A stretch of 53,378 bases of DNA, taken from Limnothrix sp. RL_2_0 (GTDB lineage Bacteria > Cyanobacteriota > Cyanobacteriia > Cyanobacteriales > MRBY01). The notes beneath the pieces are model-generated. The model was not told where the DNA came from and did no database searches. It saw nothing but the letters and a program-made list of their open reading frames with translations. Position 1 is the stretch's first letter; every line of letters starts with the position of its first letter. The stretch is from the NCBI GenBank assembly GCA_012033055.1, contig JAAUPR010000020.1, forward strand, positions 1 to 53,378. Reading direction: 5' to 3'. Positions 4,924 through 27,193 of the stretch are shown one piece after another. A program made the translations under genes and the position numbers.

Positions 4924-6630
4924 TCAAGCAATGACTTGAGGATCATCACTGAGACTCTTTTTAAGCAGAGGAATTTGATTCAGGGGCATTGAAAAAGTAA
5001 CCGTCGATCCGAGATCTTCGCCCATGCTGTAAAAGGAAACAGTGCCGCCGATAGCCTCTACTAATTTTTTGGAAATTGCCAAGCCTAAACCCGTACCACC
5101 ATATTTGCGGGTATGACCACCTGTGACTTGAGAGAAACTCTTGAACAACTTGTCCTGCATATCTAAAGCCACACCGATGCCCGTATCTTCTACTTTGATT
5201 TTCGCCATGCCGGGAAAGGTTTGACCATGGCGCTGCACTTGTTTGAAAACCAGCTCCACACTAATCATTACGCCCCCTTCATTCGTGAATTTCAGGGCAT
5301 TACTCACTAGATTTAGCAAAATCTGAAAAGTACGTTGGTAGTTGGAATAGAGCAGAATATCGTCGTAGGTGTCGGGAACAATGATGTCCCAAGTGAGGTT
5401 TTTGCTTTCGGCTTGGGGGCGGGCAAAATTTTCGACATTTTTGAGTACTTCTGAGAGGCTGACGGCATCAAGATCAATTTCAACTTTACCGGATTCGATC
5501 TTGGCAATATCGAGGATGTCATTGATCAGATTGAGCAGATGGATGGCGCTTTTGTGGGCTTCATCGACAAATTCCAGTTCTTCTTCGCGATCATCGGCCA
5601 TGTCATCCAAAATTAACTTTAGGAAGCCGATAATGCCGTTAAGGGGTGTACGTAGTTCGTGGGTGGTGCTGGCGAGGAAATCGCTTTTGAGGCGGGAGGC
5701 TTCGGTGGCGGCTTGGTTGGCTTGCTCTAGCTCATGGTAAAGGGTTGCATGGCCGATGGCTGTACCTAGTTGCTCGGCGAGTTCTTGGGTAAGTTCTTGT
5801 TCTCCTTCACTCCAATCGCGGGTGTTATCGCATTGCTGGAGGCAGATAAAGCCATTGACTTTATTTTGGTAGAGGGTTGGCACAACGAAGGCGGATTTGC
5901 TGTCTCCGAGGGCTTCGGCGAGGAAGTCAACGGTGAGGGCTTCGCGGGATTGGAGGGCGGTGGTGAGGAGGGGGCTTTCGGGCGATCGCCATTGTACTCC
6001 CAGCACTGATTTCACATCTGTGTGACGATATTCTGCCTCGACTTTAAACATTTTTTTCGCGTCGTCATAGGACAACAGCAAACAGCGACTCACTTCTAGG
6101 ACTTTGCCAAGACCAGTGACAGCTTCTTGGCGGATAGCCACAAGGTCGAGGGTGCTGCGAATATTTCGGGCAATCTTCGTTAAAACTTTTTGGTATGGAT
6201 CCGCCTGACGGGGCAAATTGGGCTGTTGGGTTAAGGCTCCATCGATTGCGGCTAATTGGTGGGCGATCGCCAAGATTTGTTGAGCACCGCCGTCCGCCGT
6301 CACAATGGGCGAGAGATTTAATTCTAGGGGGAGCGCTTGTCCCTGACATTCAAATAAACAAAAAACCTGTTCGGGTAAATGCCGTGCCAATACCCGTTCG
6401 CAGACTTCTTGTAACTTCGTGGGATTGTCCGATAAAAACCACTGAAAAATTGAAGTGCCGACGATTGCTTGGGGAGAGAGACCAAACTCTGCCGAGCGTT
6501 GCCAATAAAAAGACGAGCAAAGACCCGTTTGCTCCTGAACCCAAACCAGCTCAGCGCCTAGGGATCGCCAATACTGGATATGCAATTCATTTTGAGACGA
6601 AGACATCAGATCTGAATTCATATGATTCAT
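4924..6630 (-). CDS. GAF-domain sensor histidine kinase
   Basis: A 568-residue soluble two-component kinase. Residues ~15-125 look like a PAS-type sensor (weak), ~150-300 are GAF-like, followed by HisKA with the phospho-accepting histidine H324 in STTHELRTPLNGIIGF and HATPase_c with LLNLVSNALKFTNEGGV (N box), VEDTGIGV (G1) and YGGTGLGLAISKKLVE (G2). There is no transmembrane segment and no receiver domain. No response regulator gene lies adjacent, so the partner is unknown. The first ATG is at 6628-6630; a second in-frame ATG is 3 codons later. Confidence 0.92.
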   Translation of the reverse strand: MNHMNSDLMSSSQNELHIQYWRSLGAELVWVQEQTGLCSSFYWQRSAEFGLSPQAIVGTSIFQWFLSDNPTKLQEVCERVLARHLPEQVFCLFECQGQALPLELNLSPIVTADGGAQQILAIAHQLAAIDGALTQQPNLPRQADPYQKVLTKIARNIRSTLDLVAIRQEAVTGLGKVLEVSRCLLLSYDDAKKMFKVEAEYRHTDVKSVLGVQWRSPESPLLTTALQSREALTVDFLAEALGDSKSAFVVPTLYQNKVNGFICLQQCDNTRDWSEGEQELTQELAEQLGTAIGHATLYHELEQANQAATEASRLKSDFLASTTHELRTPLNGIIGFLKLILDDMADDREEELEFVDEAHKSAIHLLNLINDILDIAKIESGKVEIDLDAVSLSEVLKNVENFARPQAESKNLTWDIIVPDTYDDILLYSNYQRTFQILLNLVSNALKFTNEGGVMISVELVFKQVQRHGQTFPGMAKIKVEDTGIGVALDMQDKLFKSFSQVTGGHTRKYGGTGLGLAISKKLVEAIGGTVSFYSMGEDLGSTVTFSMPLNQIPLLKKSLSDDPQVIA

Positions 6631-6828
6631 CCGTCGCTCGCTGTCGGTGGTGTAAAAAGTTCTGTGGTGGTGAGTCTAACCATCATAGTTGTCGCTAAAA
6701 AACTAGGCTTTAATGCTTCTGCCATCGGCTAGGCTGATTCTCTGACCAGATAAGCTGATGTTACTGCTTTGTTGCAAAAAAAACCTTGGCGATCGCCAAG
6801 CTTAAAGATAGATCCATGCAGCCAACGC

Positions 6829-7059
6829 TCAATCGTTCCATTCGCCTTTGGGCGGCACAGGAGGATTGCGGTTAAAGCGGCGTGTTAATTCATCATCCCT
6901 TGTACGTTCGCCTCGCAACCATTGTTTAACGGCTGTTTCGATGACCTTACTCGGATCATTGGTGAGATGTTTGATTTGCTCTAAAACCTCTGGGTCGAGG
7001 TGGATAGAGATTTCCGCTTTATCAACATTTTGATCGGCTTCAGTGGGATTATTTTCCAT
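6829..7059 (-). CDS. small ribbon-helix-helix (Arc/MetJ/CopG-like) protein
   Basis: A 76-residue protein with a ribbon-helix-helix signature: a polar N-terminus, the strand AEISIHLD (about residues 15-22), helix PEVLEQIKHLTN and helix SKVIETAVKQWLRG. Such proteins bind DNA as dimers and are often antitoxins or autoregulators. No toxin-sized open frame is seen on the minus strand on either side, so it appears to be an orphan. Two inverted repeats lie just upstream (7072-7081 and 7145-7161) and could be operators. The tail ending in GEWND is unstructured. The family is inferred from pattern, not from a database. Confidence 0.7.
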   Translation of the reverse strand: MENNPTEADQNVDKAEISIHLDPEVLEQIKHLTNDPSKVIETAVKQWLRGERTRDDELTRRFNRNPPVPPKGEWND

Positions 7060-7071
7060 AAAAAAACAAGA

Positions 7072-7081
7072 GTATTAATAC
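7072..7081. promoter_or_regulatory. palindrome just upstream of the ribbon-helix-helix gene
   Basis: GTATTAATAC is a perfect 10-bp palindrome ending 13 bp before the start codon, the position expected for an autoregulatory operator of a ribbon-helix-helix protein. Function is inferred from position only. Confidence 0.35.
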
Positions 7082-7144
7082 CCTTACTTTATCAAATAGC
7101 GCTCCTTCCACCTACGTCAATGTCTGTGTTCGGAGAGTCGTCTG

Positions 7145-7161
7145 TCATCAAGGCTTGATGA
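7145..7161. repeat. 17-bp inverted repeat between speD and the ribbon-helix-helix gene
   Basis: TCATCAAG-G-CTTGATGA: two perfect 8-bp arms around one base. No T-run follows on either strand, so a protein-binding site is more likely than a terminator. Confidence 0.4.
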
Positions 7162-7193
7162 TTATCTCGAGTCTGGTGTCCTTGAATACCCGG

Positions 7194-7580
7194 CTAACAA
7201 GCGGTGGCGATCGCCTGAGATGCTGCGAGGTGAGCCGTGGGAAAGCCCCGATCAAATTCAGTCATTTTGACCTCCGTTGCCCGTAGCGCCCGTTGAAGAA
7301 AATTCATCGCTTCTACAGGTTTGCCCTGACCACAGAAAAATAAATCCGCCGCAAAATAACCATATTCCGGCCATGTGTGAATGGCGATATGAGACTCAGC
7401 TAAAGTGGCAGTAGCGGTGACGCCATGGGGACTGAATTGATGGACACAAAGATCGATAAGTGTTGCTTCGCCGACGGCGATCGCCTCCAGAATAGCCAGA
7501 CGAATCGCTTCCGAATCATTAAGGAGATCCGCTGGCGCACCCCAGCCATCCACCACGAGATGAGTTCCCAATTTTTGCAT
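7194..7580 (-). CDS. speD: S-adenosylmethionine decarboxylase proenzyme
   Basis: Pyruvoyl enzyme that decarboxylates S-adenosylmethionine to supply aminopropyl groups for spermidine. At 128 residues it has the short bacterial form. The self-cleavage site is LAESHIAIHTWPE, with Ser63 becoming the pyruvoyl group; the segments GTHLVVDGWG and FFCGQG are also typical. I chose the ATG at 7578-7580 because MQKLGTHLVVDGWG is the normal family start. A further 22 codons upstream are open (to 7646) but do not resemble the family. Confidence 0.93.
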   Translation of the reverse strand: MQKLGTHLVVDGWGAPADLLNDSEAIRLAILEAIAVGEATLIDLCVHQFSPHGVTATATLAESHIAIHTWPEYGYFAADLFFCGQGKPVEAMNFLQRALRATEVKMTEFDRGFPTAHLAASQAIATAC

Positions 7581-14022: not shown

Positions 14023-14544
14023 ATGTCTCAGGATTTGGATCAAAAGGCCTATTATCTGTACAAATTGGCGAAGGAAAATCCCCATGATGAAAATCTACAG
14101 TTAGCGGCCAATCTGGTGAAAAGTACGCGGCGATCGCGGGGCAGTTTGCAGAGTTGGAACCAGCGTTATCGGGAAGATATCAATGATTTGGACGCTTTGG
14201 TGCAGTCAAAGGAGGAGGCAAATATGGAACTGCAGCAAGAATTGATGGTGATGAATCAGGAGCTAGAGTTGCTGGCTCAAGAAAAGATTCGTCTCGTTGC
14301 CCAAAGAAAAAAGGCGATCGCCGAGCTTAAAAAAATTGATGATGAGGTCACTGTTGCGGTTGCCCAAGTTAAAAGCAAAAAAACATGGTTTGGCAAGTTC
14401 TCAGTACTGTGGTCATTTATGAATACATTATTTCTTGATGACGAAGACATGGGAGAAGTTGACTATTCCCTACAACCGGATCCTGATCAACCACAATTAG
14501 GTTCTAGTATTGCTGATGTCCAGAAAAGTTTATTAGATAAATAA
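14023..14544 (+). CDS. coiled-coil protein of unknown function
   Basis: A 173-residue protein, not recognised. The N-terminus (QKAYYLYKLAKENPHDENL) resembles a TPR-like helical hairpin; residues ~60-115 (EEANMELQQELMVMNQELEL and on) are a strong coiled coil; then a short hydrophobic patch (KFSVLWSFMNTLFL) and an acidic, Pro/Gln-rich end. ATG start preceded by GGTGGTTTT. It lies 15 bp before another unknown gene in the same direction, so probably an operon. Divergent from prlC. Confidence 0.7.
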   Translation: MSQDLDQKAYYLYKLAKENPHDENLQLAANLVKSTRRSRGSLQSWNQRYREDINDLDALVQSKEEANMELQQELMVMNQELELLAQEKIRLVAQRKKAIAELKKIDDEVTVAVAQVKSKKTWFGKFSVLWSFMNTLFLDDEDMGEVDYSLQPDPDQPQLGSSIADVQKSLLDK

Positions 14545-14559
14545 TAAAGAAAAACATAA

Positions 14560-14943
14560 ATGTCTAGATTCAGCAAAATCATTGATCAACTAGAAGATTT
14601 AGATCAACAAGATCTTAAAAACTCGGCCAAATTGTTTGGTATTACGGCAGAGCTATATCAAAAGCTAAGTAATCTAACTGAAGCATCTCGTCCCCCCCAA
14701 GCTTTAATAAATAGCAAAAAAGTTACTCAAAAATCTTTGACCCAGCGTTATGGTGGCTATGGGAATACTTATCAAATATATAAAGAAAAATACGGCATCA
14801 AATGTAAAACTGGCTGGAAATATTTACTGCCCCTCATTCAAGACTTGCCAATGCCTGAAACAGTGGAAGAACGCATTGCTAAACTGGAGAAGAAAGTACT
14901 TGTTTTGTCTGAGATTCTGCTGACAATGACTCAGGAAAATTAA
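14560..14943 (+). CDS. small unknown protein, second gene of a pair
   Basis: A 127-residue protein, not recognised. Helical N-terminal half (FSKIIDQLEDLDQQDLKNSA), a central basic and aromatic stretch (QRYGGYGNTYQIYKEKYGIK) that could bind nucleic acid, and a C-terminal amphipathic helix (ETVEERIAKLEKKVLVLSEI) likely to be a coiled coil. Follows the coiled-coil gene by 15 bp; the two proteins may interact through their helices. No signal peptide or membrane segment. Confidence 0.65.
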   Translation: MSRFSKIIDQLEDLDQQDLKNSAKLFGITAELYQKLSNLTEASRPPQALINSKKVTQKSLTQRYGGYGNTYQIYKEKYGIKCKTGWKYLLPLIQDLPMPETVEERIAKLEKKVLVLSEILLTMTQEN

Positions 14944-15467: not shown

Positions 15468-16001
15468 ATGAGCAGTTACAGTCTCTTTCCGCAATACAAA
15501 AGTTTCCTGCTTAAAAAGCTATTTGGGCATTTCTTTTGTGGTGAGGAAGACAATCAAAAACCGAAGGCTGATTTGGCTGTGACGGTGACTAATGATGTTA
15601 TGGATGTAATTCCCGGCACAGAGGTTGTTTATACAGTTACAGTGCATAATTACGGTAGCGAAAATGTTAGCGGAGCAAGTTTATCGGAAGCATTGCCTTC
15701 TGCTTTGACTAATGTTGAATACTATCGTGACGATGTTAGTCCCGGTAATTTACTAGAGGCTTCAAGTCTTGGTGATATTTCTGTTGATATTCCTGCGGGT
15801 GGCTATACGACTTATCGGATTAAAGGCTTCGTTGCTTCTGATGTGGTGGGCGAGTTGAACTATGGCGTTGAAGTGGAAGTGCCAGAAGGGTTTGTCGATC
15901 CAGATTTATCAAATAATTCGGCTAGTGATATTGGCGATCGCCTGACACCTGTTGCAGATTTATCAGTCACGGTGGATAACGCCGTGCCGTTACGGAAGTA
16001 A
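15468..16001 (+). CDS. giant surface protein, part 1: N-terminus with DUF11-type repeat
   Basis: First piece of one large gene spanning 15468-21267 (about 1,908 residues once repaired). No classical signal peptide is visible at MSSYSLFPQYKSFLLKKLFG. The first DUF11 repeat begins PKADLAVTVTNDVMDVIPGT and includes VVYTVTVHNYGSENVSGASL, a beta-sandwich module common in bacterial surface proteins. A second repeat starts at ADLSVTVDNA, then the frame is lost. One base missing in CCGTTACGG at about 15989-15991 explains the stop at 16001: the next frame continues as TEVNPGDAVTYTITVRNDG, exactly what the repeat requires. Confidence 0.8.
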   Translation: MSSYSLFPQYKSFLLKKLFGHFFCGEEDNQKPKADLAVTVTNDVMDVIPGTEVVYTVTVHNYGSENVSGASLSEALPSALTNVEYYRDDVSPGNLLEASSLGDISVDIPAGGYTTYRIKGFVASDVVGELNYGVEVEVPEGFVDPDLSNNSASDIGDRLTPVADLSVTVDNAVPLRK

Positions 16002-16033
16002 ATCCGGGTGATGCTGTTACTTACACAATTACA

Positions 16034-18070
16034 GTGCGGAATGATGGGGTCTCCGATGTGGTGGGGGCTAGCCTCTCAGAATTTCTGCCTAGTTCGCTCA
16101 CTGGGGTGACCTATTACGAAGTTAAAGATAACGACGGTGAAACTGTACTGGAAGAAATTTCCGGTTTTAGCGAACTTCAGATTGACTTGACCGCAAATAG
16201 TGATGTGACCTATCAAGTTCAGGGTATCGTTGCTGCCGAGGCGACGGGAGAGCTGGAATATGGTGTGAGTATTGCAGTCCCAGAGGATGTTACTGACCCA
16301 GACTCGTCGAATAATTTTGCCTATGACCAGGGGGATGGGGTCGATGAAGATGGTAATGAAATCGATGGCGATCGCCTTATTTCAGGCGGTGTCGATTTAG
16401 CCGTAAAGAAAACCTTCGATCTAAACACAGTTGAGGCGATCGATAACAATGGCGACGGCACAGCAGATCAATTTATTGCATCCCCCAGCGATCAATTTAC
16501 CAACAGCTTTGTCGAGTACACCCTAACAGTGACCAACAACGGCGAAGCAATGGCTAAAAATGTATTGCTCTTTGAAGATCTCACCCAGAAAAATCCCATT
16601 GGCTTAGAATTCGATCAGTTCATCAATCTTGATGGTGGCACAGCCCTAGACACAGACGAAAACGCCAATACCCTTGAAGTTAGTTTTGGCAACCTCGCTG
16701 CGGGCGAATCAAAAGAGGTGATCGTACGCGCAAAAATCGATGCCCTGAAAGCCTTTGAATTTAGTGCCCTACTCGGCAATATTGAGCCCCTAGCCAATAC
16801 TGTTAACACTGATATCCCCGAGTATCTGAATATCTTGCTAGAAGGAAAGTTTTTCCTCAGCCCAGATTTAAATAAAGAAGCTGGCAGTCAGCTCGTGACC
16901 TTTAACCAGCTCAATATCCAGAACACGGCGGAAGTGACCTCTGATAGCTTCGAACTCAACGCCTTCGACAACACCACAACTTCCCGACTGGATATCACAA
17001 CCATTGCCCTTGACGGCACACTCAATAACGGGAGCAACGTAACCATCCGCTCCATTGAACGATTGGGGGTCATTGGCTCTAAAACTGCCTACGTGATAAA
17101 CCCTGATCCGATTTTGGTGAATGGTCAGAAGCTTTTGCAGTTTGGGGTGACTAATCCTTTTACTGGCTTTGGTTTAGGGGTTGGGGGTACGGCAACTTTC
17201 GCGATTTCTGAGGTGACGGGTACGGCTGGGGCGGATGGCATTTTTGGTAATGGGGATGATAATGTCGCGGGTCGTCAACTGCTGCAAACTTTGGCGATCG
17301 CCGATGGTAGTGGCGCTGATTTGGATGCGGATGCAGCGGAGGTCAGCACGGAGTTTTTGATTGCCAAATCTCTCACAGACCCAACGAATAAAGTCTTTGC
17401 CATTACAACCTCTGTGAACGACCCCGTGTTTGGGGCGCAGCAATTTACCAACTATTTCGATATTAATGGCCAAGCGATTCCGGCGAATATCGTTGATACG
17501 ACTGGCAATAGTCTGTTTATTAATGTTGCTCTAAATACTTTTACGGTGACGAATGGGGATACGGGCTTCCCAACCTATAATAATTCTGACTTTTTGCTGT
17601 CTGGGGATCTGAATGAAGATGGCATTTTAGATCAGTTTGGGGCCTCTTTATCTGAGTTTATTTGGAATAAGATTGAAGATCAGGCTTATCTTGCGGATCT
17701 CGCGATTTGGGAAACCCTTGCTTCAGAAGCTAATGGCGATTTTGCTGACGAGCAGGCGATCGTTGATTTTCTCTACGATAAGTTCATCAGCACAGATGTT
17801 TTCGGTTTTGAGAATTTCCAACAAGGCTCCTTCACCCTCGAAAATGAAGTGGGCGATCGCACGCGACTGGAGATCCTACACGGTGAATTGCGTCAAGACG
17901 ATGGTGTACTCAGAAATACTCCCAATAGCCTTGAATTATTAGTTAATGATGATGGCGTTTTTGCTGGTGAAGCGGTCTACGGCAATCTTGAAAAAGCCCT
18001 CTCAGACTTATTCCCTGTTAACAGTGAGCCAGCCCCTCGGTTTAGGTGCTTGGACATCACCACAGGCTGA
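16034..18070 (+). CDS. giant surface protein, part 2: DUF11 repeats and middle region
   Basis: Continues part 1 after the lost base; the in-frame sequence actually begins about 45 bp upstream of the GTG at 16034. Contains the rest of the second DUF11 repeat (VRNDGVSDVVGASLSEFLPS), a third (FVEYTLTVTNNGEAMAKNV), then a long Asn/Asp-rich beta region with no signature I know. The frame stops at 18070 with CLDITTG, but a neighbouring frame takes over with LGLGAWTSPQADITSRADL. An extra C in the CCCC run at 18033-18036 accounts for the shift. Confidence 0.78.
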   Translation: MRNDGVSDVVGASLSEFLPSSLTGVTYYEVKDNDGETVLEEISGFSELQIDLTANSDVTYQVQGIVAAEATGELEYGVSIAVPEDVTDPDSSNNFAYDQGDGVDEDGNEIDGDRLISGGVDLAVKKTFDLNTVEAIDNNGDGTADQFIASPSDQFTNSFVEYTLTVTNNGEAMAKNVLLFEDLTQKNPIGLEFDQFINLDGGTALDTDENANTLEVSFGNLAAGESKEVIVRAKIDALKAFEFSALLGNIEPLANTVNTDIPEYLNILLEGKFFLSPDLNKEAGSQLVTFNQLNIQNTAEVTSDSFELNAFDNTTTSRLDITTIALDGTLNNGSNVTIRSIERLGVIGSKTAYVINPDPILVNGQKLLQFGVTNPFTGFGLGVGGTATFAISEVTGTAGADGIFGNGDDNVAGRQLLQTLAIADGSGADLDADAAEVSTEFLIAKSLTDPTNKVFAITTSVNDPVFGAQQFTNYFDINGQAIPANIVDTTGNSLFINVALNTFTVTNGDTGFPTYNNSDFLLSGDLNEDGILDQFGASLSEFIWNKIEDQAYLADLAIWETLASEANGDFADEQAIVDFLYDKFISTDVFGFENFQQGSFTLENEVGDRTRLEILHGELRQDDGVLRNTPNSLELLVNDDGVFAGEAVYGNLEKALSDLFPVNSEPAPRFRCLDITTG

Positions 18071-18563
18071 TATTACGAGTCGTGCCGATCTTGTTGTTGG
18101 TTCAGATTTGACGCTGTTGGGACGATCTTTAGATTTAGAAGGTTCTGTAGTCGCTGGTGGTCAATTAGACTTGTTCGCTGCCGATACGATTCAGATCCGC
18201 GATCGCCTCGATTATCCTTTTGCGACATTAAGTTATGGTGTCCAGACCCTTGAAGCTGAAACCATTGATATCTTTGCCCTGAGTCATCCTGATAGCGGAT
18301 TGTATGCCTACGGTGATTTAGTGCTGCGATCGCCCAACCCGATTATTATCGATGCTTATTTCAACAGTCTCGGCAATTTCCGATTAGAGAATACCAATGG
18401 CTTGGTAGGGGATGGCCTTAGCCCAAATGATCCAGTAATTCGCGCGAGTGGCGATGTGACCTTTGGGACTTATACAGGCGCTTCATTGCATGTATTGGCG
18501 GGCGGCCGTATTCGAACTGGCAGGATCACGATTAATTCTGCCGACAGTACCAATGGCTTATAG
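18037..18563 (+). CDS. giant surface protein, part 3: start of the beta-helix region
   Basis: Third in-frame piece of the same gene. Encodes GAWTSPQADITSRADLVVGS, LEGSVVAGGQLDLFAADTIQ and FGTYTGASLHVLAGGRI, the style of right-handed beta-helix repeats in cyanobacterial haemagglutinin-like exoproteins. It stops at TAG 18561-18563, right after the first copy of a 38-bp direct repeat. The second copy (18596-18633) resumes the same protein sequence in another frame, so the stop is created by a 73-bp duplication. Confidence 0.75.
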
Positions 18564-18633
18564 AAGTGCCGAGATTTGTCGTTACTGTATACCGCGGATC
18601 ACGATTAATTCTGCCGACAGTACCAATGGCTTA
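18523..18633 (+). repeat. 38-bp direct repeat (offset 73 bp) that breaks the surface-protein gene
   Basis: Identical 38-bp copies at 18523-18560 and 18596-18633 start GGATCACGATTAATTCTG and end ACCAATGGCTTA. They are separated by 35 bp that do not repeat and hold a stop. The 73-bp offset is not a multiple of three, so the frame shifts by one. Both copies encode ITINSADSTNGL, and the protein reads through smoothly (ITINSADSTNGLQETVIL) if one unit is removed. Confidence 0.9.
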
Positions 18634-21267
18634 CAAGAAACGGTTATATTATCCGATGGCTCAACCCCAGTAAATATTGATGGTCAAAATGTTGCAACAT
18701 TAGATCTTCGCGCTGGCACAAATAGTTTTGGTAGTGATGCTGTCACCGGCTTATTCAATTTCCCACCATTCCCGATCGCTACTCCTTGTAGCAATACTTT
18801 CTGTACGAATTTGAATGTATTTCCTCCCATTGGAGCGCCAACTTCAATTCTCCAGAATTTTGCAAAGGCTCCACGATCTGCCTCCGCCGACATCATCATT
18901 GGTAGCCTCAAATTTAGTAATGGTTTAGTTGATAATTTTGCGTTTATCTCTAATCAATACGATCCAAATACCACTGGTATAACTGGCGGAGATATTGTGC
19001 TTGGAAAATTGGACAATGGGGCCCCGGGCGAAATTAGTCTCAACACATCCGGTGATTTTTCTCTCGTTGTTGACTCACGTGGTGACATTGATATTTTTGG
19101 TCAAGTGACACCGGGTACTGCTGGTTTAGAGATTGGAGAGATTTTGTTGCGATCTGCTGGTGATATCTCAATTGGCAATAACGTCGGCTTTTTAAAAACA
19201 GTAGAAGACAGAAGAGTTGGAGATGTTGCTATTTATGCTGCGGGTGACGTGAGATTGAATAACATTGTTGACGCGGCGGGCAATATTTCGATTGAGGCCA
19301 ATGCGCTGATTGGTGGGGAAGGCAATCAAATTAAAGCTTCCACTACAGGTATCAAGGATGCTGGCAAGATTTTTGTACAGGCAAATCGGGTCGAGTTTTC
19401 TGGAGTGAATAATGTTGGTGTTTTTAGTGGCTTAAGTAGCATTGCTAGTGCCGGATCTACTGGGCGTGCAGGGGTAATTGAGGTCAAGACGGATTTTCTG
19501 TCTTTAAAAGATGGTGCTCAGATTCGTACCAGCACTTTGGGAGCGGGTGATGCTGGTGTGGTGAAGATTACGGCAAATGAGGCGATCGCCATTGATGGCG
19601 GCAAAGTTATCAATACTCCATCCGGTCAGGAACCCGTGCCCAGTGGCATTGTCAGCGAAGTAGCTCAGGGTAGCACCGGCAACGGCCAGTTAATCGAGAT
19701 CACGAGTAAAAATTTATTGGTAACCAATGGTGGCATCATTAGTTCCGCTACGGCTGGGGTTGGTAATGCTGGTGAGATTAAAGCCTCTGTCACAGAAACC
19801 GCGTCATTTTTAGGGAATCCCGGTGCGCCCCTGTTTCCCAGCGGGGTATTTACGCAAGTGATTGCCGGTTCGGATGGTCGTGGTGGAAATCTCGTTTTTA
19901 AGGCAGCCGATTTATCCCTTACGGACGGGGCAGAGTTTCGATCTTCTACGGCGAGTGTGGGCAAGGCGGGCGATATTACGGTGAATATTACGAAGAATTT
20001 GGCGATCGCCGGGAATGGTTCCGGTCTCTTTGCCAACGCCGCATCCGGCTCTACAGGGACTGGAGGAAATATCGTTACCACTAGCCAAAATCTTGCAGTG
20101 ACAGCAGGGGGGCGAATTAGCTCTGATACCGCTGGAGCAGGCAATGCAGGTCGTGTGGAGATCGGGGTAGAGCAACTGGCTCAGTTCGATGGGCGATCGC
20201 CCCAAAGCAATGCTCCCAGTGGCGTGTTTGTAAGTTCCTTGGCGGGTTCCGGTGGAGCTGGCGGCAACCTACGAGTGAAAGCGGCAGATCTCACCATTAC
20301 TAACGGCGCTCGTTTAGAAGCCCTCACCGCCAGTGCCCAAAATGCAGGCAATATCAAAATTGATGTGAGCAACGATGTGAGTGTCTCCGGGGAAGGATCA
20401 GGGGTCTTTGCTAATACGGCGATCGCCTCGTCCGGTAATGGCGGCAATATCGATATTGATCCAATTTTTATTCGATTGAGTGATGGTGGACGGTTTTCTG
20501 TGAGTGCCGAAGGCAGTGGTGTTGCGGGAAATATCAGAGTTGTTGGTGATTTCTTGATTTTAGATAATGGCTTTATCGATGCCTCATCTCAAGCCGGTTC
20601 TGGTGGCAACTTAAGCTTCGACATTGGGCAATATATCCAGCTGCAAAATGGCAGTAATATTACGACTAACGCAGGTCTCAGTAGTGGTGGTGGTAATGGT
20701 GGCAACATGAACATTCGCGTCCCATTTGTAATTGCCACACCAAATCAGGACAATAACATTACTGCCAATGCTTTTGATGGGAATGGCGGCAATATTGAAA
20801 TCACAGCTGATGCTTTATTAGGCATTACTTTTAATGATGCGAATATCTCAGTGAGAAACGACATTACAGTGAGTTCTAAGCTGGGTGTAGATGGTGAATT
20901 TATTCTCAATACTCCGGATGTGGATCCCAGCTCTGGGTTGGCAAAATTGATTACAAATACTAACGATCCAAGCAATAAAGTTGTCGAAGCTTGTTCTTCT
21001 GATGTAGTGAATTCCTATACCGTTACTGGTCGTGGTGGCTTGGCTGCTGATCCTGGCTCTACGGTGCGGGGCAATAACCTTGTATCCGACCTCAGGGATT
21101 TTTCTGAATCGTCTAGTGAAATGACAATAAATTTCCCTGCTGAAGCCGCGACTGCTCCACAACAAATCCAGCAAGCCACAAATTTTGTGGTAGGAGAAAA
21201 AGGAATAGAATTAGTCGCTAGTCGTACCGTTGAGCACCATGAAACTATCGCATCCAATTGTCGTTAA
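18597..21267 (+). CDS. giant surface protein, part 4: haemagglutinin-like repeats and C-terminus
   Basis: Largest piece. The ATG at 18463 in this frame is not the true start; authentic sequence begins at the second repeat copy. About a dozen beta-helix units of the type GNAGEIKASVTETASFLG, GSTGTGGNIVTTSQNLAVT and TAGAGNAGRVEIGVEQLA follow, as in filamentous-haemagglutinin-like TpsA exoproteins of cyanobacteria. The C-terminus has the family's closing segment: a cysteine (EACSSDVV), SYTVTGRGGLAADPGS and a final NCR. The N-terminal TPS secretion domain normal for TpsA is absent, and DUF11 repeats stand in its place. No TpsB/FhaC pore gene is in the window. The next gene's ATG follows 20 bp later. 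Confidence 0.85.
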
Positions 21268-21287
21268 TATCTAGAGGTTTATTGCTG

Positions 21288-23912
21288 ATGTCACAGGGTA
21301 TTAATCTACACAATAAAAGGAACTATAGTATTTGGCTCTTAGCCTCAATCGCAGTATTTGGCACATTGGATTGCCTCCTGATCTCGCCAGCTGTTGCCGG
21401 GCGATCGCCGCACATCTCCACCCCACTAACGGATTCCCTGTCCATATCTGCATCGACGACTGCTGGGTTTGAACAAGGGAAACAGTATTATCAGCAAGGT
21501 CAATTTAAGCAGGCAATTCAAGCTTGGGAGTCAGCCCTAGAAGGCTATAAAAATACTGGAGATATCCTGAAGCAGATTCAGACTTTGAACTTTTTGGCCG
21601 CCACTTATCTTGAATTGGGAGAAGTTGGCATTGCCGAAGATGCTGCGAATAAAAATGCTGTCTTATTTCAAAAACTGGGTGAAAGTAATACTCAAATAAA
21701 TTCACTCTTCGCCCAATCCCTAAATAATCAAGGCATGATTGCTTTAGCTTTGGGGAAAACCCAAGAATCTCTCCTAATCTGGAAAGAAGCGAATGCTCTC
21801 TACGCTAAAAATAATGATGAATTTGGTGTTGTGACTACCAATATTAATCAATCCCAGGCATTGCAAACGTTAGGGCAATATCGTAAGGCGAAAGATGTAC
21901 TCGAAAAATCGGTTATCCAGTTGCAAACGCAAGAAGATTCTATTTTAAAAGTGAAATCTTTGGAGAGTTTAGGGGTGGCTCTACAGAATCTAGGGGAGCC
22001 TTTGGAGTCAAAACAGGTATTAGAAGAAAGTTGGAAAGTGAGTCGTGCTATTAACTCTTCTAGTGCAACCAGTTCGGTTTTGTTTAACTTGGGTAATGTC
22101 GCCAAGGATTTAGAACAATATGATGTGGCGGCGCAATATTATCAACGTTCTTTTGAGCTAGCTGCTAATCCGATAGACCAATTAGATATTCAACTAAATC
22201 AATTGCGTTTGGCGCTCCAGATTAAGCAATTTGATCAGGCTGGGGCGATTATCCCAGATATTCAAAATAATCTGCAATTGTTGTCTACTAGTCGGCAGCG
22301 GATTTATACGAGCATTAATTTCGCTGAGAGTTTATTGCAGACATCCCAAGTGGTGGATGATGGTGACCGGAATTTGACGGCGATCGCCGATTACCAAAAC
22401 CCAGGTTTAATGATTGGTGTCTTGACCCAAGCCGTCCGTGATGCGCGGGAAATTGGTGATATTCGGGCGGAAGCCTATGCTTTGCAACAATTGGGGAAAA
22501 CCTATTTCACTTTCAATGAATTGTCTGAAGCTGCGACGATTACAAAAAAAGCTTTAGATCTCGCCCAGAGTATTAACACGAACGATCTCACAGCTCGTAC
22601 CTCTAGTCAGTTAGCGACAATTCAAAAAGCTCAGGGCAATAAAACTGAGGCGATCGCCACCTATGAATTAGCCTTTGACCAATTGCAGACATTGCGGCGG
22701 GATCTCGTGGCGGTGAATCCTGACGTGCAGTTTGAGTTTAAAGAAAATATTGAACCTATCTACCGCAGTTACGTGGATTTGTTACTCCAGCCAAATGCGA
22801 GCCAAGCAGATCTACAACAGGCCAGAGCCGTGATGGAAGCACTGCAATTAGCAGAACTCGATGACTATTTTCGGGATGCCTGCTTGGATGTATATCCAGT
22901 GAATCTAGAAGAAGTCGATCAGCAAGCGGCCATTATTTACCCAATATTGTTGGGCGATCGCCTAGAAATTATTGTTTCCCTACCCGATAAGACCCTGAAG
23001 AATTTCAGTGCGCCCGTCACAAGAGACCAGCTAGAAGCACGCCTAGAGCGTTTCCATTCCTCCTTCTCCCCCGGTTTTCCCGGCGATCGCCACCGGAACT
23101 ATGCCAAACAATTTTACGACTGGCTTATCCAACCTATCGAAGCCGAACTCCGTGCCGCAGATATTCAAACCCTTGTTTTTATTCCCGATAGCTTTCTGAG
23201 AAATATCCCGATGGCCGCCCTATACGACGGCGAACAATACTTGATCGAGAAATATAGCATTGCGATCAGCCCCGGTCTGCAACTGTTTCCCCAAGGCATT
23301 AATCAGCAGAAATTAGATGTCTTTGCCGGAGGCCTAAGCGAAGCGCGACAAGGCTTTGAATCCCTCCCCGGCCTGAATAAAGAGATTGGTCTTATTGCAG
23401 AGCAAGCAAAATCCCTCGTTCTCCTCAACCAAAATTTCACCTACGACAATCTCATTGAGACCGTTAATGACCAATCCTTTCCTGTTGTCCACCTCGCGAC
23501 CCATGGTCAATTTAGCTCCGATCCTGATCGAACCTTTTTGTTGGCTTGGGATCAACGTATTTCCTTGGAAAGTTTTGATCGTCTCTTCGAAAAAAGGAGA
23601 CTGGGTATCCTCGATCCCATCGAATTATTAGTGATGAGTGCTTGCCAAACGGCGCAGGGCGATAATCGTGCAGTGTTGGGATTGTCGGGGTTTGCGTTGA
23701 GATCGGGGGCAAAAAGTACCTTGGGCAGTTTGTGGCCTGTGAGCGATGAATCGACGACTGAATTGATGATCGAATTTTATGATCAGTTGCTCAACCAAAA
23801 CCAGTCAAAAGCGGAGGCACTGCGGCAGGCCCAACTCAAATTATTACGAGATCCCACCTATGAACACCCCTTCTTTTGGTCTGCGTTTATTCTGGTAGGC
23901 AACTGGCTATAG
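21288..23912 (+). CDS. TPR-CHAT domain protein (caspase-like protease family)
   Basis: An 874-residue exported or membrane-anchored protein. After the ATG at 21288 comes one hydrophobic segment (IWLLASIAVFGTLDCLLISP), then about eight TPR-like repeats (residues ~60-460), and a C-terminal CHAT domain, a clan CD peptidase related to caspases and separase. The catalytic pair is visible: His739 in VVHLATHGQF and Cys786 in LLVMSACQTAQGDNRAV, with LSGFALRSGAKSTLGSLWPV downstream, so activity is plausible. I prefer the ATG at 21288 over a TTG at 21258 that overlaps the previous gene. Probably cotranscribed with the surface protein upstream and DUF928 downstream; a role in processing the surface protein is a guess from context. 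Confidence 0.92.
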   Translation: MSQGINLHNKRNYSIWLLASIAVFGTLDCLLISPAVAGRSPHISTPLTDSLSISASTTAGFEQGKQYYQQGQFKQAIQAWESALEGYKNTGDILKQIQTLNFLAATYLELGEVGIAEDAANKNAVLFQKLGESNTQINSLFAQSLNNQGMIALALGKTQESLLIWKEANALYAKNNDEFGVVTTNINQSQALQTLGQYRKAKDVLEKSVIQLQTQEDSILKVKSLESLGVALQNLGEPLESKQVLEESWKVSRAINSSSATSSVLFNLGNVAKDLEQYDVAAQYYQRSFELAANPIDQLDIQLNQLRLALQIKQFDQAGAIIPDIQNNLQLLSTSRQRIYTSINFAESLLQTSQVVDDGDRNLTAIADYQNPGLMIGVLTQAVRDAREIGDIRAEAYALQQLGKTYFTFNELSEAATITKKALDLAQSINTNDLTARTSSQLATIQKAQGNKTEAIATYELAFDQLQTLRRDLVAVNPDVQFEFKENIEPIYRSYVDLLLQPNASQADLQQARAVMEALQLAELDDYFRDACLDVYPVNLEEVDQQAAIIYPILLGDRLEIIVSLPDKTLKNFSAPVTRDQLEARLERFHSSFSPGFPGDRHRNYAKQFYDWLIQPIEAELRAADIQTLVFIPDSFLRNIPMAALYDGEQYLIEKYSIAISPGLQLFPQGINQQKLDVFAGGLSEARQGFESLPGLNKEIGLIAEQAKSLVLLNQNFTYDNLIETVNDQSFPVVHLATHGQFSSDPDRTFLLAWDQRISLESFDRLFEKRRLGILDPIELLVMSACQTAQGDNRAVLGLSGFALRSGAKSTLGSLWPVSDESTTELMIEFYDQLLNQNQSKAEALRQAQLKLLRDPTYEHPFFWSAFILVGNWL

Positions 23913-23975
23913 GTTGGCTATATTCCTGCTGTCTTTGATTTTTATGAATTGTGTTTTGTCTTGAGAGATTTTCAT

Positions 23976-24995
23976 ATGAGCCAACTCCGCTATATTGCTG
24001 TCCTATTTTTGATCTTCGGAGGTAGTCTCTTGTCTGCTTCCCCTAGGGTGTTGGCGGATTCGCTTGATGGGCAAAAATCAGAGTCGGCGATCGCCCCAGA
24101 AAATTGGGTGAGTATTGACATCGAAATCCCTAACGACGTACCACCCGTCAATGCCATCGGGAGCCAGAGCCGAGGCACAATCAGATTTAGCCTGCCCGAT
24201 AAAAGTGACAATCCCAATTCCACCATCGGCGGCGGTTCGCGGGGAGCAGTACGGTTCCGTCCCTCTGGAGATATTGGTAGCCCCCGTTCCACCATTGGTG
24301 CGAGTACTCGTGGCGGTGTGCAATTCAGCTTGCCCGATGATAAAGGTAATCCTGATCTCACCGTTGGGGGCGGGAGTCGTGGCGCGGTGCAATTTGGTTT
24401 GCCCGATGATGCCGAAAATCCCAGTTCAACCATTGGGGGGGGTAGCCGTGATGCCCTAATCCAAACCCCGCTGACGGCTTTACTCCCGGACACGAATAAC
24501 GGTCGCACTGCTTCTAGTCACCCCACAATTTTTGTGTATTTGCCACCGATGGGCACAGAAGAAATCTTTTTTAGCCTGCAAGATCAAGACGGCAATTTTC
24601 TCTACGATACTTTCATTCCCGGTGTACCAAACGGCGGTGTAGTCGCTGTTTCTATTCCAGCCAATGCCCCGCCCCTCGTCGTTGATAAACCGTATTTGTG
24701 GTATTTTGCTCCCATTGAACCGGGCGGCAGATTATTGCCGAATAATTATGCGGTGACTGGCTGGGTAAAGCGAGTGGATGCGCAACTATCCCCACAGGAT
24801 ATGGCTGAAACTGCACCTATCAAACGGGCGATCGCCTATGCAGAACAAGGTCTTTGGTATGACACGCTCAAAATTTTGGCAGATGCATTAGTAGAAAATC
24901 CTGACAATGGAGAAATTCATACGGAATGGCATGACCTGTTGCAGCAAATAGATTTAGAGGTGTTGTCTACTCAATCCATTATTAAATCAAGCTAA
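23976..24995 (+). CDS. DUF928 protein with an amplified 23-residue repeat
   Basis: A 339-residue exported protein. Signal peptide MSQLRYIAVLFLIFGG to about ASPRVLA, from the ATG at 23976 (preceded by GAGAG). Residues ~61-160 are four and a half copies of a 23-residue unit, consensus IGGGSRGAVQFGLPDD plus NP..ST. Residues ~165-335 match the cyanobacterial DUF928 pattern: TIFVYLPPMGTEEIFFSLQD, PYLWYFAPIEPGGRL, VTGWVKRVD and the helical end IKRAIAYAEQGLWYDTLKIL with D...NGEIHTEW. DUF928 proteins of unknown function often neighbour CHASE2 and CHAT genes, as here. Confidence 0.85.
   Translation: MSQLRYIAVLFLIFGGSLLSASPRVLADSLDGQKSESAIAPENWVSIDIEIPNDVPPVNAIGSQSRGTIRFSLPDKSDNPNSTIGGGSRGAVRFRPSGDIGSPRSTIGASTRGGVQFSLPDDKGNPDLTVGGGSRGAVQFGLPDDAENPSSTIGGGSRDALIQTPLTALLPDTNNGRTASSHPTIFVYLPPMGTEEIFFSLQDQDGNFLYDTFIPGVPNGGVVAVSIPANAPPLVVDKPYLWYFAPIEPGGRLLPNNYAVTGWVKRVDAQLSPQDMAETAPIKRAIAYAEQGLWYDTLKILADALVENPDNGEIHTEWHDLLQQIDLEVLSTQSIIKSS
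24156..24458 (+). repeat. tandem 69-bp coding repeats in the DUF928 gene
   Basis: Four full copies and one partial copy of a 69-bp unit, in frame (23 residues each), starting IGSQSRG, IGGGSRG, IGASTRG, VGGGSRG and IGGGSRD. Copies differ by several substitutions, so this is an old amplification, not an assembly artefact. In the DUF928 proteins I know, one GG(G/A)xR-type motif is usual. Confidence 0.85.
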
Positions 24996-25024
24996 TTGAT
25001 CTTCTTCAAAATGCTGGTGTTGAG

Positions 25025-27193
25025 ATGATATGGCAAAAAATTAGGGCACAATGGCAAGCGCAAAAGCAGAATGTGGTGCTTGTTTTTTCCATGACTAGTT
25101 TTTTGGTCGCAGCGAGTAGCATGGGGCTGTTTCGTTCATTGGAATGGGCCGCTAGCGATCAGTTATTTCGGATTCGGCGAGAACAGGGTCTTGATGAAAA
25201 TATCGTGATCGTGACCATTGATGAAGATGATATTCAGTCTGTCGATCAATGGCCCATGGCGGATCGGGATTTGGCGAAGGTTCTCAGTAATATCAAAGCT
25301 CAACAACCGAGGGCGATCGCCTTAGATTTGTACCGCGATTTGGAGGTAGCACCGGGCAATGACGCATTAGTCGAGGTGTTTCAAACAACCCCTAATTTGA
25401 TCGGTGTCCAGAAAATTGCTGGTGATACCATTGACCCTTCCCCTGATCTCGCTGCCCAAGGTCAGACGGCGGCTAATGATCTCATCCTTGATGCAGACGG
25501 CAAAATTCGCCGGGGGACAGTGCTCCTGACCAAAGAAGATGACAGCCTGATTGAAGGACTTGCGATTAAATTGGCCATGATTTTCCTTGGGGAGGAAGGT
25601 ATTAACCTCGAAGTTATTGATGAGGAGAAAAGTATTTATGGGTTAGGCCAAGCCACATTTATTCCCCTATCCCCCAGCGATGGTGAGTATCGCCAAAAAG
25701 ATATGGGCGGCTATCAGATCGTTTTAAATTATCGGGGCGGCCTCGACTTTTTTCGGCATATTTCCCTCGCCGATGTTCTCGAAGGCAGCATTCCACCTGA
25801 TTTGATGACGGATAAAGTGGTGATGATTGGTCCCACCGCCCCCAGTCTCAACGATATTCACCAGACTCCCTATAACAATTCACTATTTTTCTCGGAACCC
25901 CTTGTGCCGGGTATTGTGATCCATGCCAATCTGACGAGTCAAATTATTAGTGCTGCCCTAGAAAATCGTGCCATGCTGCGCTTGTCGCCTAGGGTGATGA
26001 ATTATGCCATTATCTTGGCTTTGGTTGCTTTCAGTACCATTCTTGGGCGTATTTATCTCAGTAATCGACTACTGGCGATCGCCTACCTGTTGCTCAGCTT
26101 AGGGACTATTGTGGCGATCGCCTACGGTGCATTTTTGTTGGGCTGGATTATTCCTATTTTTACGCCATTATTCACCATTGTTACGGCAACCGCCGTTGCC
26201 ATTATTAGTAATCTTTGGCTCAATCTCAAGAATGCCTATAAAGACTTAAAACAGCAACACAAAATATTAGAGCATGTCTATCACCAGCTAGAAGAAACCA
26301 ACCATTCCTACAGCCGTTTTGTGCCGTTTGACTATTTGGATTTTCTGCAAAAAGAAAAGATTATGGATGTGAACCTCGGCGACCATGTGAACCGAGAAAT
26401 GTCGATTTTGTTTTCGGATATTCGCTCCTTTACGCCCCTCGCGGAGAGCATGACTCCTAAGGAGAATTTTGATTTTATTAATGCCTATCTCCAGCAATTG
26501 TCTCCAGAGATTCGTAACCATCGGGGTCTAATTGTGAAATTTCTTGGGGATGGGGTGATGGCGATTTTTCCGAATAGTCCAGAAGATGCCCTCGACTCGG
26601 CGATCGCCCAGTTTTATAAGTTAGATATCTTTAATCAAGAGCGTTGCAAACTAGACGACCAACCCATTCGTATTGGCTTAGCTATCCACAGCGGCAAAAT
26701 TATGGTCGGGATTGTCGGTGAAGCCTCTCGGATGCAGAGTGATATTCTCTCTGATAGCGTGAATTTGACAGCTCGCCTCGAAAGCTTGACGAAGTTTTAT
26801 GGGGTGTCACTGATTATTTCTGAGACCGTATTTTGGGGCATAGAAAACCATGAAAAATACGATATTCACTTTTTAGATCGGGTCATTGTTAAAGGCAAAA
26901 AAATGCCAATTAGTATTTATGAAGTGTTTAACTGCGACTCTGAGACTTTAAAGGTAGCGAAGCGAGCAGCCCAAACCCGTTTTACGCAGGCTTTAGAGTT
27001 CTATCATCTCGGAAAATTTCTCGAATCACGGACAATGTTTGATCTATTGAACTCGGAATATCCTGAAGATCGAGTTTTTAGAATTTATATTGCTCGACTC
27101 AATCAACTGGTGCGCGACCGTGTGAGTAATTCGCTAAGCCTTCAGGAGCAAGCTAGTTGGGATGGTATTTGGCGATTTGACGAAAAATATTAG
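25025..27193 (+). CDS. CHASE2-domain adenylate/guanylate cyclase
   Basis: A 722-residue membrane receptor cyclase. One N-terminal membrane segment (~18-36), an extracytoplasmic CHASE2 sensor (~40-320, with IVIVTIDEDDI and DKVVMIGPTAPS), three close membrane segments (~325-400), a linker coiled coil, and a class III cyclase domain (~450-650). The two metal-binding Asp are in ILFSDIRSFTP and KFLGDGVMAIF; the purine and transition-state residues lie in SDILSDSVNLTARLE. The Asp in the substrate position suggests ATP, hence cAMP. A short TPR-like tail (FTQALEFYHLGKFLESRTMF) ends the protein. ATG is 29 bp after DUF928, so the same operon. It converges on ftr1 with a 17-bp gap. Confidence 0.92.
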   Translation: MIWQKIRAQWQAQKQNVVLVFSMTSFLVAASSMGLFRSLEWAASDQLFRIRREQGLDENIVIVTIDEDDIQSVDQWPMADRDLAKVLSNIKAQQPRAIALDLYRDLEVAPGNDALVEVFQTTPNLIGVQKIAGDTIDPSPDLAAQGQTAANDLILDADGKIRRGTVLLTKEDDSLIEGLAIKLAMIFLGEEGINLEVIDEEKSIYGLGQATFIPLSPSDGEYRQKDMGGYQIVLNYRGGLDFFRHISLADVLEGSIPPDLMTDKVVMIGPTAPSLNDIHQTPYNNSLFFSEPLVPGIVIHANLTSQIISAALENRAMLRLSPRVMNYAIILALVAFSTILGRIYLSNRLLAIAYLLLSLGTIVAIAYGAFLLGWIIPIFTPLFTIVTATAVAIISNLWLNLKNAYKDLKQQHKILEHVYHQLEETNHSYSRFVPFDYLDFLQKEKIMDVNLGDHVNREMSILFSDIRSFTPLAESMTPKENFDFINAYLQQLSPEIRNHRGLIVKFLGDGVMAIFPNSPEDALDSAIAQFYKLDIFNQERCKLDDQPIRIGLAIHSGKIMVGIVGEASRMQSDILSDSVNLTARLESLTKFYGVSLIISETVFWGIENHEKYDIHFLDRVIVKGKKMPISIYEVFNCDSETLKVAKRAAQTRFTQALEFYHLGKFLESRTMFDLLNSEYPEDRVFRIYIARLNQLVRDRVSNSLSLQEQASWDGIWRFDEKY

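What the first reader, a model, noticed from the sequence alone, without database searches (positions are those of the whole stretch)
15468..27193. Accessory operon: DUF11/haemagglutinin surface protein + TPR-CHAT protease + DUF928 + CHASE2 cyclase
Four same-strand genes with gaps of about 20, 63 and 29 bp join a ~1,900-residue surface protein to an exported caspase-like CHAT protein with intact His/Cys, an exported DUF928 protein and a membrane cAMP-type cyclase. Members of this set recur together in cyanobacteria as I recall, but no function has been assigned. A testable model: CHASE2 senses an envelope state, CHAT cleaves the surface or DUF928 protein, and cAMP carries the signal. This is the best candidate for an undescribed system in the window.
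Basis: partly seen in the sequence, partly recalled or inferred. Interest (0 to 1): 0.75.

Follow-up and report, generated by a model that had tools for sequence, protein, structure and literature searches.

The report
Half-decayed cyanobacterial surface-protein signalling locus
The window carries one copy of a gene set that cyanobacteria repeatedly keep together (an exported caspase-like protease, an exported protein of unknown function and a membrane sensor that makes cAMP); the large surface-protein genes in front of them are broken in this genome, and what the set does has not been tested.

Summary
The gene order and gaps are as described, but the '~1,900-residue surface protein' is not one gene: it is the wreck of two. 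A same-genus complete genome has the intact five-gene locus: DUF11/RTX protein, TPS (haemagglutinin-type) exoprotein, TPR-CHAT, DUF928, CHASE2-cyclase. In the window both surface genes are broken by a frameshift, a deletion of about 1.47 kb that removed the exoprotein's signal peptide and TPS domain, and a 73-bp insertion. CHAT (His/Cys intact), DUF928 and the cyclase (ATP-type residues) are intact.

The families do recur together. In 60 DUF928-centred loci, CHASE2 occurs in 41 (1.8 expected), CHAT in 36 (5.5), TPS in 28 (2.8). DUF928 and CHASE2 copy numbers track each other across 80 genomes (rho 0.94; partial on genome size 0.88; kinase control 0.21), and their sequences co-vary. I found no paper describing the set as a system.

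Best model: an envelope-to-cytoplasm signalling module, with DUF928 as periplasmic partner of the CHASE2 receptor, a periplasmic CHAT peptidase and, often, a TPS exoprotein. DUF928 carries an invariant Arg in a GGx[ST]RG motif, a candidate cleavage or docking site. That CHAT cleaves the surface protein is untested, and here that substrate is gone.

The parts
15468..17993 (+). Remnant of a DUF11-repeat (C-terminal RTX-like) surface protein gene; 3' end lost
   Evidence: DUF11 Pfam hits; aligns in two frames to the intact 1214-aa gene of L074
15983..15994 (+). Frameshift in the second DUF11 repeat (reading passes from frame 0 to frame 2)
   Evidence: ORFs 15468-16001 and 16034-18070 and alignment to L074
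17994..18016 (+). Junction of a ~1.47-kb deletion that removed the end of the DUF11 gene and the start, signal peptide and TPS domain of the exoprotein gene
   Evidence: L074 5225-6024 aligns up to 17958 and L074 7512 onward aligns from 17994; missing piece absent from the rest of the assembly
18015..21267 (+). Remnant of a TPS (filamentous-haemagglutinin type) exoprotein gene without its secretion domain
   Evidence: 62-76% aa identity to L074 6915-10886, which carries PF05860 TPS
18523..18633 (+). 73-bp insertion: 38-bp perfect direct repeat with 35-bp filler, frameshifting the exoprotein remnant
   Evidence: the repeat finder D2; absent in L074
21288..23912 (+). Exported TPR-CHAT caspase-like peptidase, intact (His749 at 23502, Cys796 at 23643, ORF numbering from 21258)
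   Evidence: Pfam, 59% aa identity over nearly full length against L074, residues
23976..24995 (+). Exported DUF928 protein
   Evidence: Pfam PF06051; N-terminal hydrophobic stretch
24162..24452 (+). Five SRG/TRG/SRD motif repeats (GGGSRG type, 22-23 residue spacing) in DUF928; the motif's Arg is invariant in 70 of 70 DUF928 proteins
25025..27193 (+). CHASE2 membrane receptor with class III cyclase domain, predicted adenylate cyclase (Asp465, Lys505, Asp509, Asp573, Asn580, Arg584)
   Evidence: Pfam; alignment to Cya2 2w01 and 6fht; residue positions

Best explanation
The locus is one copy of a cyanobacterial envelope-signalling module. Its core is an exported DUF928 protein working as periplasmic partner of a CHASE2 membrane receptor, often accompanied by a periplasmic or surface TPR-CHAT peptidase and a TPS exoprotein. 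Proposed working: an exoprotein or envelope state is read in the periplasm; CHAT trims a periplasmic component; DUF928 changes the state of CHASE2; CHASE2's cytoplasmic output (here adenylate cyclase, so cAMP) carries the signal. Shown: gene content, co-inheritance, conserved CHAT dyad, ATP-type cyclase residues, and loss of both surface genes in this assembly. Inferred: physical DUF928-CHASE2 contact, CHAT's substrate, and the direction of the signal.
For: DUF928 neighbourhoods hold CHASE2 in 41/60 loci against 1.8 expected, CHAT 36 against 5.5, TPS 28 against 2.8; 19 hold all. Same-strand neighbouring DUF928/CHASE2 pairs number 34. Copy numbers across 80 genomes: DUF928-CHASE2 rho 0.94, partial 0.88 on genome size; Ser/Thr kinase control only 0.21. 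Mirror-tree r 0.60 for DUF928-CHASE2, p 0.0005 even when loci are shuffled only within genomes. Fusions join TPS to CHAT, and a cytosolic CHAT to CHASE2. CHAT His/Cys kept in 50 of 51. The same CHAT-DUF928-CHASE2 cyclase order lies in a distant named genome (L073). CHASE2 cyclases told of a signal through an outer-membrane protein are known in S. meliloti (PMC13001267).
Against: No biochemical or genetic data. Survey loci were the best-scoring DUF928 copies, so frequencies may be inflated; 11 of 60 have none of the partners, and own-genome copies on C64, C109 and C134 show none nearby. Genomes are related, so correlations are not independent. CHASE2 outputs vary. TPS-CHAT co-variation is not significant within genomes (p 0.25). 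Synteny does not prove a shared pathway.
Confidence: 0.5

Rival explanations
1. Adhesion/aggregation island: the TPS exoprotein is the business end, CHAT matures the exoprotein on its way out or at the surface, and the CHASE2 cyclase only sets expression or motility through cAMP. DUF928 is a chaperone or outer-membrane accessory.
For: TPS>CHAT adjacency with a 16-bp median gap, and TPS-CHAT single-chain fusions; TpsB (ShlB) genes near some loci.
Against: DUF928 follows CHASE2 more tightly than it follows TPS; 10 loci have DUF928 with CHASE2 alone.
Confidence: 0.25
2. Caspase-like death or conflict module (EACC2-like or polymorphic-toxin-like), in which CHAT is the effector released on a signal.
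For: Some DUF928 loci use a cytosolic CHAT-CHASE2 protein with a sigma-like gene and DUF1822, resembling the EACC2 systems of PMC8195603.
Against: The window CHAT is exported, the CHAT end is constant rather than variable, no immunity gene was seen, and PADLOC gives only generic TPR and cyclase hits.
Confidence: 0.08
3. In this genome the locus is dying: surface genes already dead, downstream genes soon to follow, with no current function.
For: Three lesions in two genes.
Against: CHAT, DUF928 and cyclase are full length, with residues intact and far more synonymous than non-synonymous change.
Confidence: 0.12
4. The lesions are assembly or sequencing errors of a 200-contig draft and the five-gene locus is intact. 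(This concerns the surface genes only and can hold together with the best explanation.)
For: Draft assembly; remnants still show strong codon constraint; the 38-bp perfect repeat with filler looks unusual.
Against: Three separate lesions of different kinds; the deleted segment is not on any other contig.
Confidence: 0.2

Closest known systems
Synechocystis Cya2, a CHASE2-regulated class III nucleotidyl cyclase (PMC5995499; PDB 2w01)
   Same: CHASE2 receptor plus membrane helices plus class III cyclase; closest solved relative of the catalytic domain
   Different: Cya2 has Glu488 and makes cGMP; the window protein has Lys at that position, as in the E488K variant that makes cAMP
S. meliloti CyaD1/CyaD2/CyaK with NsrA (PMC13001267)
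   Same: CHASE2 adenylate/guanylate cyclases told of an outside signal by an envelope protein
   Different: No CHAT, DUF928 or TPS gene named in the passages read; the envelope partner is an outer-membrane beta-barrel
Two-partner secretion exoproteins (PF05860 with ShlB/FhaC PF03865)
   Same: The intact relative's second gene has the TPS domain and the own genome holds ShlB genes
   Different: In the window the TPS domain is deleted; no ShlB gene among the ORFs of the relative's 20-kb stretch, and the own-genome ShlB genes are on other contigs
EACC2 caspase systems with ECF sigma factor and DUF1822 (PMC8195603)
   Same: Ten CHASE2 proteins of the survey carry an N-terminal CHAT; DUF1822 and a sigma-like gene lie near DUF928 in some loci
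   Different: The window CHASE2 protein has no CHAT domain, and neither DUF1822 nor a sigma-like gene was seen at the locus
DUF928/CHASE2/WD40 cluster noted in Nostoc (PMC5587647)
   Same: DUF928 next to CHASE2
   Different: Described there as a lineage-specific arrangement with WD40 genes; here the DUF928-CHASE2 pair is shown to be widespread

Membership tests
CHAT peptidases (PF12770) | CHAT domain with His and Cys dyad | tested here: met
CHAT peptidases (PF12770) | Proteolytic activity | not testable with these tools
   no assay possible
DUF928 (PF06051) | Pfam profile above cut-off | tested here: met
   151.5 bits against 26
CHASE2 class III adenylate cyclase | CHASE2 ectodomain, membrane helices, cyclase domain | tested here: met
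CHASE2 class III adenylate cyclase | Two metal Asp, ATP-type Lys/Asp, Asn/Arg pair | tested here: met
   Asp465, Asp509, Lys505, Asp573, Asn580, Arg584; Lys at the Cya2 E488 position; roles of the other residues from general knowledge of class III cyclases
CHASE2 class III adenylate cyclase | cAMP production | not testable with these tools
   no assay possible
Two-partner secretion exoprotein | N-terminal signal peptide and TPS domain | tested here: not met
   deleted in the window; present in L074
EACC2-caspase/sigma/DUF1822 system | CHASE2 protein with N-terminal caspase-like domain, DUF1822 and sigma gene alongside | tested here: not met
   window CHASE2 protein has only CHASE2 and cyclase; no DUF1822 or sigma-like hit among the adjacent genes searched
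Anti-phage defence system | Match to a known system's component set | tested here: not met
   only generic TPR and PycC-cyclase profile hits
Single operon | Co-transcription | not testable with these tools
   short gaps, and fewer terminator-like hits than in shuffles, are suggestive only

The most novel reading that the evidence does not exclude
A protease-gated envelope receptor: CHAT cleaves DUF928 at its invariant GGx[ST]R-G motif (repeated five times in the window protein), and cut or uncut DUF928 sets the state of the CHASE2 receptor. Surface events would thus be turned into cAMP, c-di-GMP or phosphorelay signals across cyanobacteria.
Probability: 0.15. Interest if true: 0.85.

Novelty: new variant of a known kind. 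Interest (0 to 1): 0.55.

Why it matters
DUF928 has no assigned function and CHASE2 ligands are unknown in cyanobacteria. Showing that the two families rise and fall together in copy number, sit side by side and diverge together gives DUF928 a concrete, testable role as the CHASE2 partner. It also ties the large cyanobacterial expansions of exported CHAT peptidases and TPS exoproteins to signalling. For this window it also corrects the record: the surface proteins are broken.

Tried and rejected
Reading 15468-21267 as one protein: rejected, three frames and a deletion. Finding the missing exoprotein segment on another contig: absent. Tracing the 35-bp filler to another fetched locus: only the window's own copies. 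Folding DUF928 from the single sequence: mean pLDDT 52; the Foldseek hits (beta-sandwich carbohydrate-binding and fn3-like domains) are too weak to use beyond 'beta-sandwich plus C-terminal helices'. I did not submit the 70-sequence DUF928 alignment for folding because its loci came from the fetch from genomes, which the folding tool's stated list does not include. Searching solved structures with the CHAT protein: TPR matches only. Polymorphic-toxin and phage-defence readings: not supported. The one genome-contig scan gave a single locus. The paper search for sll1891 gave only the paper already found.

Full report
What is there. The stretch 15468-27193 holds three intact genes and the remains of two. 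ORF listing gives the surface region as four ORFs in three frames, 15468-16001, 16034-18070, 17946-18563 and 18463-21267. Pfam finds DUF11 in the first two and nothing in the last two; CHAT with TPRs in 21258-23912, DUF928 in 23949-24995, CHASE2 plus Guanylate_cyc in 25025-27193.

The surface genes are broken. A DNA search of relatives found one same-genus complete genome (G081, single contig of 5,125,950 bp) with the whole locus. Its stretch L074 holds an M3 peptidase, as in the window, then a 1214-aa DUF11/RTX protein, a 1323-aa exoprotein with TPS domain, an 880-aa TPR-CHAT protein, a 370-aa DUF928 protein and a 723-aa CHASE2-cyclase. Against it the window shows (i) a small frameshift near 15986; (ii) a jump from L074 ~6060 to 7512 across window 17994-18016, a loss of about 1.47 kb containing the 3' end of the DUF11 gene and the exoprotein's signal peptide and TPS domain; (iii) a 73-bp insertion made of a perfect 38-bp direct repeat and a 35-bp filler. 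The lost segment is on no other contig. Remnants and intact genes all show far more synonymous than non-synonymous difference from L074, so the lesions are recent, or are errors of the draft assembly (200 contigs). I cannot separate these two with the tools.

The intact three. CHAT: His749 and Cys796 present; the dyad is kept in 50 of 51 CHAT domains of the survey, the last being a gap in the alignment. CHAT and DUF928 have signal-peptide-like N-termini. The cyclase's best solved relatives are Cya2 (2w01) and the phytochrome fusion built on it (6fht). Cya2 is itself CHASE2-regulated and turns from GTP to ATP on E488K (PMC5995499); the window protein has Lys505 at that place, so ATP is the predicted substrate. 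This is a residue-based prediction, not a measurement.

Does the set recur? DUF928 was counted in 80 genomes of the order. I read 60 loci of about 13-20 kb, each around a high-scoring DUF928 gene, from 33 genomes, and searched them with profiles grown from the window's proteins and the relative's TPS domain. CHASE2 lies in 41 of 60 (1.8 expected from genome densities, p about 1e-48), CHAT in 36 (5.5 expected using upper-bound counts, p about 1e-23), TPS in 28 (2.8, p about 1e-22); 19 have all three and 11 none. These p-values treat loci as independent, which related genomes are not. DUF928 and CHASE2 are same-strand neighbours 34 times. TPS>CHAT>DUF928>CHASE2 in that order is seen in L074, L087 and L137, and CHAT>DUF928>CHASE2-cyclase in the distant L073.

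Genome-wide, the four families' copy numbers rise and fall together: DUF928-CHASE2 rho 0.94, still 0.88 after removing genome size and 0.87 after also removing Ser/Thr kinase number, while kinases themselves reach only 0.21 with DUF928. Every one of 73 genomes with DUF928 has CHASE2; six of seven without it lack CHASE2. Pairwise divergences of neighbouring DUF928 and CHASE2 proteins correlate (r 0.60), more than when partners are shuffled only within genomes (p 0.0005); DUF928-CHAT is weaker (r 0.29, within-genome p 0.002) and TPS-CHAT not significant within genomes (p 0.25). So DUF928-CHASE2 is the tight core, CHAT and TPS looser company.

What varies. CHASE2 proteins beside DUF928 carry cyclase (18 of 43), histidine kinase (8), GGDEF (3), kinase or SpoIIE outputs, or an N-terminal CHAT domain (10). 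The last type, with DUF1822 and a sigma-like gene nearby in some loci, resembles the EACC2 caspase systems of PMC8195603. Hence cAMP is this copy's output, not the system's.

A clue in DUF928. In 70 aligned proteins an Arg in a GGx[ST]RG motif, upstream of the Pfam core, is invariant; two cysteines, one soon after the motif and one in the core, are present in 91% and 83% and tend to occur together (p 0.001). The window protein lacks both cysteines and repeats the motif five times at 22-23-residue spacing; L074 and L137 also repeat it. It may be a docking loop or a cleavage site; that some caspase-fold enzymes cut after Arg (own knowledge: metacaspases, separase) makes the second worth testing, but no cleavage was shown.

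Working model and limits. I take DUF928 as the periplasmic partner of CHASE2, CHAT as a periplasmic or surface peptidase acting on DUF928 or the exoprotein, and the second messenger as output. A precedent for a CHASE2 cyclase told of an outside signal by an envelope protein exists in S. meliloti (PMC13001267). In this genome the exoprotein can no longer be the cis substrate; other TPS exoproteins and ShlB genes exist elsewhere in the genome, as does another cluster of CHASE2, DUF928, TPS and CHAT on contig C184.

Literature. DUF928 occurs in one paper of the held library, PMC5587647, which notes a CHASE2-DUF928-WD40 cluster in Nostoc. A search joining CHAT domain, hemagglutinin and cyanobacteria found none. 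The library lacks most subscription journals, so 'undescribed' means not found there.

Noticed in passing
14023-14943: Two small genes without Pfam hits sit between the M3 peptidase gene and the broken locus; absent from the relative's locus (L074), but related DNA lies in two other same-genus genomes (G066, G027).
   Followed up: partly
L077, L079, L081 (own genome C148, C82, C137): Single open frames of about 1,520-2,160 aa that carry both a TPS secretion domain and a CHAT domain.
   Followed up: partly
L113, L123, L129 and others: CHASE2 proteins with an N-terminal cytosolic CHAT domain next to DUF928; DUF1822 and a sigma-like gene occur in some of these loci.
   Followed up: partly
18561-18595: 35-bp filler between two perfect 38-bp repeats; origin unknown, no copy in other fetched loci.
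   Followed up: partly
L001 (own genome C82:11626-12264): Another TPS exoprotein gene of this genome has an internal TAG stop in its TPS domain.
   Followed up: no
L117:7433-9208 and related loci: A transglutaminase-core protein recurs close to DUF928 in 8 survey loci (median 1.7 kb).
   Followed up: no
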